From: Lacrimispora celerecrescens
Lineage (GTDB): Bacteria; Bacillota; Clostridia; Lachnospirales; Lachnospiraceae
Length of the DNA: 64,000 nt
Assembly: GCF_000732605.1 (NCBI RefSeq)
Contig: NZ_JPME01000013.1
Location: 62,001-126,000, forward strand
Direction: 5' to 3'
Shown: positions 20,851 through 21,615 of the stretch, piece after piece
Layout of the letters: every line of letters starts with the position of its first letter
How positions within the stretch are numbered: position 1 is the stretch's first letter
The notes under the pieces: model-generated
Database searches by the model: none
Told to the model about the DNA's origin: nothing
What the model saw: the letters and a program-made list of their open reading frames with translations, nothing else
Translations under genes and position numbers: made by a program

Positions 20851-21069
20851 ATAGTTAATTCCTCTTTTCTGATGTTTCTGGTGTTTTCCGGCCAGCCCCA
20901 TCCCAAGGAGGGCGCAATTCGCCAGATTACTATGATATCTTTAAAAATATACCATTAAAATTACCGATTGTCCACTGTGAAAGCATTGAATTTCCTTGTA
21001 ATTCCGTTGAAAAATCAAAGTTGATCCCTTGGTTATATCATAGTGTTACTAAAATGACATCACTTTCAC

Positions 21070-21098
21070 TTGCAAATACAGTAACTGTGTATTAGAAT
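21070..21098 (+). promoter_or_regulatory. Promoter of a candidate antisense RNA
   Basis: TTGCAA (21070-21075), a 17-base spacer and TAGAAT (21093-21098) preceded by TAT, on the plus strand in a region with no plus-strand gene. It faces the 3' end of the small toxin-like gene. Confidence 0.6.
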
Positions 21099-21104
21099 AA
21101 TATT

Positions 21105-21199
21105 AAAGAAACAACCGCCCCATTACAAGGGGTTGGCCAAATACTCAGAATAGAAACTCCATCCTTTTCACTCGCCAAAGTTTACAAGGATGGTTTTTC
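21105..21199 (+). ncRNA. Candidate antisense antitoxin RNA (about 95 nt)
   Basis: Defined by a promoter (21070-21098) and a Rho-independent terminator (21159-21198) on the plus strand. It encodes no peptide with a ribosome binding site. It is complementary to the predicted 3' untranslated region of the 27-residue holin-like peptide mRNA, whose stop codon is at 21231, about 30 bases away. This is the geometry of type I toxin-antitoxin pairs such as txpA/ratA and bsrG/SR4 in Bacillus. No expression evidence is available; the role is inferred. Confidence 0.5.
21159..21198 (+). terminator. Terminator of the candidate antisense RNA
   Basis: CCATCCTT (21159-21166) pairs with AAGGATGG (21186-21193), then TTTTT. 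On the minus strand the same stem is followed by AGTTTCTATT, a much weaker U-run, so it mainly works in the plus direction. Confidence 0.75.
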
Positions 21200-21230
21200 T
21201 ATGCCCATTTCTGGGACTTTATAGAAAACG

Positions 21231-21314
21231 CTACTTACAATTATAAAAAATAAAGGTAAGCAATGCTAAAATGAATGTACCAAAGGCCATAAGGTCTTTA
21301 AAGTCATATTTCAT
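21231..21314 (-). CDS. 27-residue holin-like peptide, candidate type I toxin
   Basis: The peptide is MKYDFKDLMAFG followed by TFILALLTFIFYNCK: a short charged start and one hydrophobic segment of about 16 residues. This matches the pattern of putative holin-like toxins (Hol-Tox family) of Firmicutes, whose members often contain LM..FGTFILALLT. The ribosome binding site is excellent: GGGAGGTG (21321-21328) eight bases before the ATG at 21314 (another ATG at 21320 is too close). A plus-strand antisense RNA candidate overlaps its 3' region. A possible promoter is TTGCAG (21410-21415)-N17-TACCAT (21387-21392). It is too short for standard gene finding. Family membership is by eye. Confidence 0.65.
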   Translation of the reverse strand: MKYDFKDLMAFGTFILALLTFIFYNCK

Positions 21315-21557
21315 CCGCATCACCTCCCATCTATGTAATGATGGAAGGCCAACGTCCTTGCAGTGACACGATTGTTCCATATTATTATGGTAACATATCC
21401 CATTTTAATCTGCAATTATTTTCCTGGCTACAAAATGATGGATACCTATATTCTGTTATATCTTTGATAAACTATGCAGAAAAAAAGGCTGATAAATAGG
21501 TGGGTGGCAGAGAGATTGCAGGAATTCGTAACAAATTAGTATCATTTCATAATGAAA

Positions 21558-21594
21558 AGCAGGGAATACCTAGCATCTAAGCGGATTCCCTGCT
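21558..21594 (-). terminator. Terminator after spoIIP
   Basis: AGCAGGGAAT/ATTCCCTGCT, a 10-bp perfect stem with a 17-base loop, followed on the minus strand by TTTCATT. It lies 22 bases past the spoIIP stop. Confidence 0.7.
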
Positions 21595-21615
21595 CTATTT
21601 AATTAAAATAACATT

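What the first reader, a model, noticed from the sequence alone, without database searches (positions are those of the whole stretch)
21070..21415. Candidate type I toxin-antitoxin locus between lepA and spoIIP
Seen: a 27-codon minus-strand frame (21231-21314) with a near-perfect ribosome binding site and a single hydrophobic segment; a plus-strand promoter (TTGCAA-N17-TAGAAT) and terminator (CCATCCTT/AAGGATGG-TTTTT) that define an RNA of about 95 nt antisense to the 3' side of the small gene. Also seen: GTTGGCC in the toxin 5' leader (near 21350) and GGCCAAC near its 3' end (about 21132), which could pair, as in type I toxin mRNAs where 5'-3' pairing blocks translation. Known: Hol-Tox and TxpA/BsrG-like peptides have this size and layout. 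The locus sits inside a conserved housekeeping cluster.
Basis: partly seen in the sequence, partly recalled or inferred. Interest (0 to 1): 0.75.

Follow-up and report, generated by a model that had tools for sequence, protein, structure and literature searches.

The report
Hol-Tox-like toxin with antisense antitoxin
Between two housekeeping genes of a Lacrimispora bacterium sits a tiny membrane-peptide gene with an RNA predicted from the opposite strand that probably silences it; the pair belongs to a widespread group of likely 'addiction' modules of a known kind, and its messenger RNA is predicted to close on itself end to end.

Summary
The 27-codon frame (21231-21314, minus), its ribosome site, the plus-strand promoter and the terminator are present. 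Alone they are weak evidence; conservation makes the case. The peptide is in 25 of 25 genomes of the genus (Lacrimispora; 113 places) and 81 of 397 of the family; an antisense-strand promoter pattern lies beside 73 of 74 intact copies. Antisense elements outlive the peptide (18 without it), whereas 6 of 8 antisense-less peptides are broken against 4 of 85 with antisense, as expected of toxin and antitoxin. Nearest known systems: bsrE/SR5 and bsrG/SR4 of Bacillus subtilis. Leader-3' pairing also appears in 22 of 28 canonical Hol-Tox loci and three phages. So this is a new, abundant Lachnospiraceae group of a known kind. Transcription and toxicity were not tested; the window peptide scores just under Pfam's Hol_Tox cut-off, while one own-genome paralogue passes.

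The parts
21231..21314 (-). 27-codon toxin ORF, peptide MKYDFKDLMAFGTFILALLTFIFYNCK, stop included
   Evidence: Read; 25 of 25 genus genomes; dN/dS 0.16 in its group; Hol_Tox E 1.6e-4.
21387..21415 (-). Predicted mRNA promoter TTGCAG-N17-TACCAT; start of mRNA near 21380
   Evidence: Sequence; a TTG...TANNNT pattern in 64 of 74 genus leaders (12% in base shuffles).
21369..21378 (-). P1, 5' arm (GGAACAATCG) of the 5'-3' helix
   Evidence: Covariation.
21347..21360 (-).
21323..21348 (-). Predicted local hairpin CCTTCCATC...GATGGGAGG that hides the SD (GGGAGG 21328-21323)
   Evidence: Folded for 74 loci; arm sequences differ while pairing is kept in groups A-C, weak in the two group D loci.
21159..21193 (-). 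Inner hairpin of the mRNA 3' UTR; its other strand is the antisense terminator
21126..21138 (-). P2, 3' arm (GGCCAACCCCTTG); overlaps the 5' side of the mRNA terminator hairpin
21108..21117 (-). P1, 3' arm (CGGTTGTTTC)
21105..21136 (-). Predicted mRNA terminator hairpin and T-rich tail; mutually exclusive with P1/P2
   Evidence: Sequence; energy -10.2 alone against -41.0 kcal/mol for the 5'-3' duplex.
21070..21098 (+). Antisense promoter TTGCAA-N17-TAGAAT
   Evidence: promoter pattern in 73 of 74 intact genus loci.
21105..21198 (+). Predicted antisense RNA (antitoxin), about 94 nt, covering the mRNA 3' UTR but not the ORF
   Evidence: Promoter and terminator; profile R1 finds 126 such elements in 25 genus genomes. 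Not shown to be transcribed.
21159..21198 (+). Antisense terminator CCATCCTT...AAGGATGG-TTTTT
   Evidence: Sequence.

Best explanation
A chromosomal type I toxin-antitoxin locus of the Hol-Tox/BsrE kind. A 27-residue membrane peptide is made from an mRNA of about 275 nt whose SD is closed in a local hairpin and whose two ends pair in a long helix. A convergent antisense RNA of about 94 nt is complementary to the mRNA 3' UTR. Most likely its terminator loop first meets the matching inner hairpin of the mRNA. Its 5' part then takes the 3' arm away from the mRNA leader, which it resembles because the locus is an inverted repeat. RNase III would destroy the duplex. The freed leader lets the SD hairpin close by two more pairs, similar to what is reported for bsrG/SR4. 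If the antisense RNA is lost, the mRNA survives and the peptide damages the membrane. Shown by sequence: conservation, predicted structures with covariation, and the asymmetry of decay. Inferred: transcription, the order of pairing, RNase III, and toxicity.
For: Peptide in 25 of 25 genus genomes, 113 places, 1-10 per genome, and 81 of 397 family genomes; purifying selection. Antisense promoter pattern in 73 of 74 intact loci. 5'-3' duplex -32.6 to -50.6 kcal/mol in the 74 genus mRNAs; each group's leaders pair best with its own tails. 17 anchored pairs: 1148 of 1258 cells paired against 1099 +/- 4.5 with tails permuted, at most 1115 in 1000. P1 in 143 of 155 loci: 9.25 of 10 pairs against 8.62 +/- 0.04, both-side changes at 9 of 10 pairs. 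Tool count on 74: 93.9% paired against 88.0, covariation 0.324 against 0.222, neither reached in 500 shuffles. Decay asymmetry: 18 antisense elements without peptide; peptides without antisense are broken in 6 of 8, with antisense in 4 of 85, Fisher p 7e-6. Relatives also on 3 plasmids and 30 viral contigs.
Against: No RNA or toxicity data. The window peptide is 1.4 bits under the Hol_Tox cut-off; 6 of 10 relatives scanned are under it too. Predicted SD exposure does not rise when the 3' arm is removed (0.16 to 0.07), so the helix is not simply a lid on the SD. Two of the eight antisense-less peptides look intact (L082; a tandem copy in G009); 'broken' was defined after the loci had been seen, and L043 counts as broken only through its altered, longer C-terminus (with L043 counted intact p is 1.2e-4). 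Two's five measures are less clear (pairs with a both-side change 5 against 3.4, reached by 32 of 500; further pair types reached by 29 of 500). Loci are related, so counts are not independent events. 14 of 81 further loci show weak leader-tail pairing (z above -2); in L011 the 5'-3' pairing probability is 0.35. Only 7 of 18 elements without peptide keep the promoter pattern.
Confidence: 0.82

Rival explanations
1. The peptide is a small membrane regulator rather than a toxin, for example like the ComI competence inhibitor, and the antisense RNA tunes its dose.
For: NCBIfam's only hit is ComI (E 0.0022, 17.7 bits against a cut-off of 55). The copy at lepA-spoIIP is kept in 13 of 25 genus genomes.
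Against: The ComI score is far below its cut-off. Copies are many and variable (1-10 per genome), relatives sit on plasmids and viral contigs, and five genus genomes have an empty lepA-spoIIP gap. The antisense outlives the peptide.
Confidence: 0.12
2. Toxin-antitoxin as above (a variant of the best explanation, not exclusive of it), but the 5'-3' helix works as in hok or AapA: the closed mRNA is an inert store that 3' trimming activates.
For: Both mRNA ends are paired in the nine predicted minimum-energy folds; AapA3 mRNA is reported to combine SD hairpins with a 5'-3' interaction (PMC6733600, passages). The leader becomes freer after trimming (0.16 to 0.38 unpaired).
Against: The SD stays hidden after trimming in equilibrium folding. 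Trimming would also remove much of the antisense target. For B. subtilis type I systems a review describes alternatives to processing (PMC6562991, section 8).
Confidence: 0.25
3. A selfish repeated RNA element with a chance reading frame.
For: Dispersed, multi-copy, inverted-repeat structure; 18 elements without the frame.
Against: dN/dS 0.16-0.18, conserved SD, 4 of 10 peptides scanned over the Hol_Tox cut-off.
Confidence: 0.02

Closest known systems
bsrE/SR5 and bsrG/SR4, Bacillus subtilis
   Same: Peptide of 30-38 residues, bsrE mRNA 256 nt, convergent antisense pairing at the 3' ends, SD hidden locally, antitoxin loop pairing with the 3' part of helix P1 of bsrG mRNA (PMC7430163 and PMC6562991, passages and sections 7-8). 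An SPbeta-phage Hol-Tox locus (L344), whose peptide I recall as BsrE/BsrH-like without having compared it, shows leader-3' pairing (z -3.3).
   Different: Antisense predicted at about 94 nt against 163 nt (SR5). In the Lacrimispora mRNA the 3' arm of the helix is also its terminator; in L344 the terminator lies farther downstream.
Hol_Tox, Pfam PF16935
   Same: Single-helix peptide, core ...LMxFGxFxxALLTF; 77 of 80 distinct peptides match at E <= 0.1.
   Different: N-terminal F/YDFKD and a Cys in the last three residues in 75 of 90 genus copies; the window copy is under the cut-off.
txpA/RatA, Bacillus subtilis
   Same: 3' overlap of about 120 nt and complementary loops: antitoxin terminator loop with an mRNA loop, and an antitoxin loop with the mRNA terminator (PMC3531473, passages).
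   Different: Another toxin; no sequence comparison was made here.
hok/Sok and aapA/IsoA
   Same: mRNA closed by a 5'-3' interaction; SD hairpins in aapA3 (PMC6733600, passages).
   Different: The predicted antisense covers the 3' UTR and not the leader or ORF start; the SD is not bound by the 3' end.
Fst, par of pAD1
   Same: Convergent RNAs; a 5' stem-loop hides the SD (PMC7472228, passages).
   Different: par uses direct repeats so that the antitoxin pairs with the leader; here the repeat is inverted, so the antisense resembles the leader. No shared terminator.

Membership tests
Hol_Tox (PF16935) | Score at or above the curated cut-off (23.3 bits) | tested here: not met
   Window peptide 21.7 (with two upstream codons) and 21.9 bits. 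Own-genome paralogues: L002 peptide 24.4, L003 peptide 12.8; 4 of 10 peptides scanned pass. So: Hol-Tox-like, sister to members.
Type I toxin-antitoxin | Small hydrophobic peptide under selection | tested here: met
   27 aa, one hydrophobic segment; dN/dS 0.16.
Type I toxin-antitoxin | Antisense RNA complementary to the toxin mRNA | tested here: inconclusive
   Promoter pattern in 73 of 74 loci and terminator present; transcription not observed.
Type I toxin-antitoxin | Peptide toxic, relieved by the RNA | not testable with these tools
   Indirect only: decay asymmetry, p 7e-6.
bsrE/bsrG-type modules | Antitoxin overlaps the mRNA 3' part | tested here: met
   Predicted antisense 21105-21198; ORF ends at 21231. 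Ends are predicted.
bsrE/bsrG-type modules | SD hidden in a local helix of the mRNA | tested here: met
   Predicted hairpins in groups A-C, weak in the two group D loci; SD unpaired probability 0.20 in the window copy, mean 0.16.
hok / AapA-type fold-back | 5'-3' pairing that masks the SD until 3' trimming | tested here: not met
   5'-3' pairing predicted, but the SD is no more open after trimming in equilibrium folding.
Fst/par | Direct repeats giving antitoxin-leader complementarity, shared terminator | tested here: not met
   The repeat is inverted and the two terminators are separate (read).
ComI (NF052249) | Score at or above 55 bits | tested here: not met
   17.7 bits.

The most novel reading that the evidence does not exclude
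The mRNA leader is an inverted internal copy of the antitoxin's 5' half, so leader and antisense RNA compete for one 3' arm that is also the terminator: a strand-displacement switch, in which the antitoxin also tightens the SD hairpin. Antisense genes left after peptide loss may then act as anti-addiction RNAs against plasmid- or phage-borne copies of the same toxin.
Probability: 0.22. Interest if true: 0.75.

Novelty: new member of a known kind. Interest (0 to 1): 0.5.

Why it matters
It points to an abundant group of likely addiction modules in Lachnospiraceae (up to 10 copies per genome), on chromosomes, plasmids and viral contigs. The one annotation check made (3 Enterocloster plasmids) shows no feature under the match, though that gene table is incomplete. 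The end-to-end mRNA helix with covariation gives a concrete structure to test, and leader-3' pairing in 22 of 28 canonical Hol-Tox loci suggests a shared control logic for this toxin group. The decay asymmetry gives genetic support for a toxin-antitoxin reading without a bench test.

Tried and rejected
Rfam: no family at gathering score in the window; for 20950-21500 three hits at E 0.24-3, all far below their gathering scores. A chance or artefact reading was dropped. A hok-like lid on the SD was weakened. An upstream in-frame ORF (49 aa) was considered and dropped: it is interrupted in L002 and L008 (read). One search ended in an output error and was redone. One search was a faulty count (its 5' anchor fell into the SD hairpin in part of the loci); one search replaces it, and still holds a few mis-anchored rows. 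Model R1 came out almost without base pairs (3 in 116 positions) and served as a sequence profile only. The shuffles keep base composition only, not dinucleotides. Peptide against the phage collection: no match. Papers: the listings showed nothing describing this group in Lacrimispora or Lachnospiraceae. A review says that an earlier search found TxpA-like sequences in Clostridium bolteae (PMC6563280, passages); a look-up of that earlier paper failed, so it was not read, and a prior sighting of a relative is likely. A holin-like toxin gene with a mapped start site is reported in C. acetobutylicum (PMC9045289, passages).

Rows left out: 94 genus loci were held after (113 places are listed), 90 of distinct sequence. 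Of these, 12 (L021, L033, L038, L040, L043, L052, L061, L073, L077, L078, L080, L082) were left out of the RNA alignment as broken or unusual and 4 as identical transcripts, leaving 74. One search tested 81 of 139 loci (36 duplicates, 22 too short or without the motif pattern). One search missed 12 of 155. One search covered 28 of the 30 loci (L336 too short, L339 not entered); two of the 28 (L330, L340) are from the window's own family, both weak. One search printed 28 distant loci; its output was cut in the middle.

Full report
What is there. The minus-strand frame at 21314-21231 encodes MKYDFKDLMAFGTFILALLTFIFYNCK behind the SD GGGAGG. On the plus strand TTGCAA-N17-TAGAAT (21070-21098) and a terminator (21159-21198) define a predicted RNA of about 94 nt that covers much of the 3' UTR of the small gene and stops before its ORF. 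The gene lies in the lepA-spoIIP gap with its own predicted promoter (TTGCAG-N17-TACCAT, 21415-21387).

Is it more than chance? The promoter hit alone is not (9 sites found, 4.6 +/- 2.0 expected). The peptide is: it occurs in 25 of 25 genomes of the genus at 113 places, 1-10 per genome, four of them in the window's own genome, and in 81 of 397 genomes of the family, 73 of 334 genera. Coding is supported by dN/dS 0.16 (30 ORFs, 429 pairs) and 0.18 (18 ORFs, 150 pairs). The antisense-strand promoter pattern is in 73 of 74 intact loci, the mRNA promoter pattern in 64 of 74, against 5% and 12% of base shuffles.

The end-to-end helix. The mRNA 5' end (21378-21347) is predicted to pair with its 3' end (21138-21108), 28 pairs in the window copy and 22-30 over the 74 loci. 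All nine mRNAs folded close this way in the minimum-energy structure. Duplex energies are -32.6 to -50.6 kcal/mol, and each group's leaders pair best with tails of the same group (for example group A leader with A tails -43.3, with B tails -25.4). Of 17 anchored pairs, 1148 of 1258 cells are standard pairs; with tails permuted among loci the mean is 1099 (sd 4.5; highest 1115 of 1000), and six pairs show changes on both sides. Over genus and wider loci, P1 has 9.25 of 10 pairs on average in 143 of 155 loci, 92 perfect, against 8.62 +/- 0.04 permuted (best of 500: 8.76), with both-side changes at 9 of 10 pairs. The tool count on the alignment of 74 gives 93.9% paired against 88.0 in shuffles and 31-62% when slid; covariation score, paired cells and cells changed on both sides were not reached in 500 shuffles, but the number of pairs with a both-side change (5 against 3.4) was reached by 32 and the number of further pair types by 29. 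The loci are related, so these counts are not independent events. Of 81 further loci, 67 have z below -2 and 59 below -3; 14 are weak.

What the helix does is less clear. The SD is predicted to lie in a local hairpin in groups A-C, weakly in the two group D loci. Its mean unpaired probability is 0.16 in the full mRNA, 0.07 when the 3' arm is cut off and 0.08 when the mRNA is cut at the inner hairpin, my stand-in for the antisense-bound state. So the helix does not hide the SD; rather, leader bases CC that pair with the 3' arm would otherwise lengthen the SD hairpin (read). Antisense binding should give these bases back, which resembles the 4-to-8-pair extension reported for bsrG/SR4 (PMC6562991, passages and sections 7-8). 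This step is inferred.

Toxin-antitoxin logic in the genomes. A sequence profile of the 3' UTR/antisense element (R1) finds 126 elements in the 25 genomes; 105 lie beside a peptide hit and 21 do not. Reading the 21: two have an intact related peptide, one a frameshifted one, and 18 have none; by my reading ten of the 18 keep the inner hairpin and the core motif and eight are partial. One of the 18 is in the window's own genome (G000:C10:339320-339430). Eight peptide hits have no antisense element; six of these are broken in SD or ORF, against 4 of 85 held loci with the element (Fisher p 7e-6; three of the eight were read and entered by hand). The definition of broken was made after seeing the loci; counting the borderline L043 as intact gives 5 of 8 and p 1.2e-4. 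Intact exceptions are L082 and a tandem copy in G009. A search by peptide finds intact peptides whether or not an antisense stands beside them, so it should not have hidden intact, antisense-less copies. Peptide-less elements decay: 7 of 18 keep the promoter pattern against 73 of 74. They may therefore be relics rather than working RNAs.

The lepA-spoIIP site in 25 genomes: 13 hold the module (in one, G015/L021, the peptide's start codon is lost); one holds it beside spoIIP with lepA 2 kb off; two hold a different peptide (MFSFADVLLFATFILALLTYIDKLKK and a relative; Hol_Tox 21.3 and 19.7 bits) with leader-tail pairing (L237 z -4.8, L241 z -2.2); three keep antisense without the peptide (G005, G007, G024); five are empty (57-85 bp); one contig ends there.

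Mobile copies. Three Enterocloster bolteae plasmids (two antisense elements in one of them), 30 viral contigs, none in the phage collection. R1 finds the element in 54 of 55 chosen distant, plasmid, viral and own-genome loci, four of which the model was built from; L237 has none, L241 only a weak match (E 0.0038), and in L122 it lies about 1 kb from the peptide.

Comparison with known systems. Pfam Hol_Tox is the family that fits: window peptide 21.9 bits, cut-off 23.3; of the own-genome paralogues scanned, one scores 24.4 and one 12.8. I therefore call it Hol-Tox-like and not a Pfam member. Canonical Hol-Tox loci of the class (31 of 291 genomes) also show leader-tail pairing, 22 of 28 with z below -3 (all 22 lie outside the window's family), and so do loci of SPbetaL6, a Brevibacillus phage and a Paenibacillus phage (z -3.3, -3.1, -3.9). 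In the SPbetaL6 locus the terminator lies beyond the helix; in Lacrimispora the two are merged. The bsrG antitoxin is reported to start at loops and then pair with the 3' part of helix P1 of the mRNA, and bsrE/SR5 to go a similar way (PMC7430163, passages), which fits; that P1 corresponds to the helix described here is my inference. The fold-back is thus likely a common property of this toxin group, so I file the finding as a new member of a known kind.

Limits. No expression data; no toxicity data; RNA ends are predicted; folding is thermodynamic only. Own-genome antisense RNAs are predicted to bind their own mRNA best, but those of L003 and L004 cross-pair strongly (-162.5 and -168.4 against own -176.9 and -183.7).

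Noticed in passing
L296 / L312 (window's own genome, G000:C10:339320-339430): A fifth element in the own genome has the antisense half but no peptide gene; it lies behind ORFs that look by eye like a BlaR1/BlaI-type pair (no search made).
   Followed up: partly
L340 (window's own genome, G000:C18:299436-299516): A further Hol_Tox match over the cut-off (27.8 bits) of another type; its leader-tail pairing is weak (z -1.4).
   Followed up: partly
L237 and L241, lepA-spoIIP gap: Two genus genomes carry a different Hol-Tox-like peptide with leader-tail pairing at the very same site.
   Followed up: partly
L002:1390-1500: The leader of this own-genome paralogue has a duplicated SD hairpin.
   Followed up: no
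L033 and L038 leaders: The promoter side of two copies is replaced by a similar foreign stretch that looks by eye like the end of an insertion element.
   Followed up: no
L313 (G009:C1 about 1936-2458): Tandem pair of modules 285 bp apart; the upstream one lacks its own antisense promoter side.
   Followed up: partly
L123 (Enterocloster bolteae plasmid pCbo51), 4098-4215 and 4430-4546: Two antisense elements in tandem on a mobilizable plasmid; no annotated gene there.
   Followed up: no
window 21559-21595, minus strand: A hairpin GCAGGGAAT...ATTCCCTGC with TTTT behind it could end the spoIIP unit, so the small gene is probably its own transcription unit (read).
   Followed up: no
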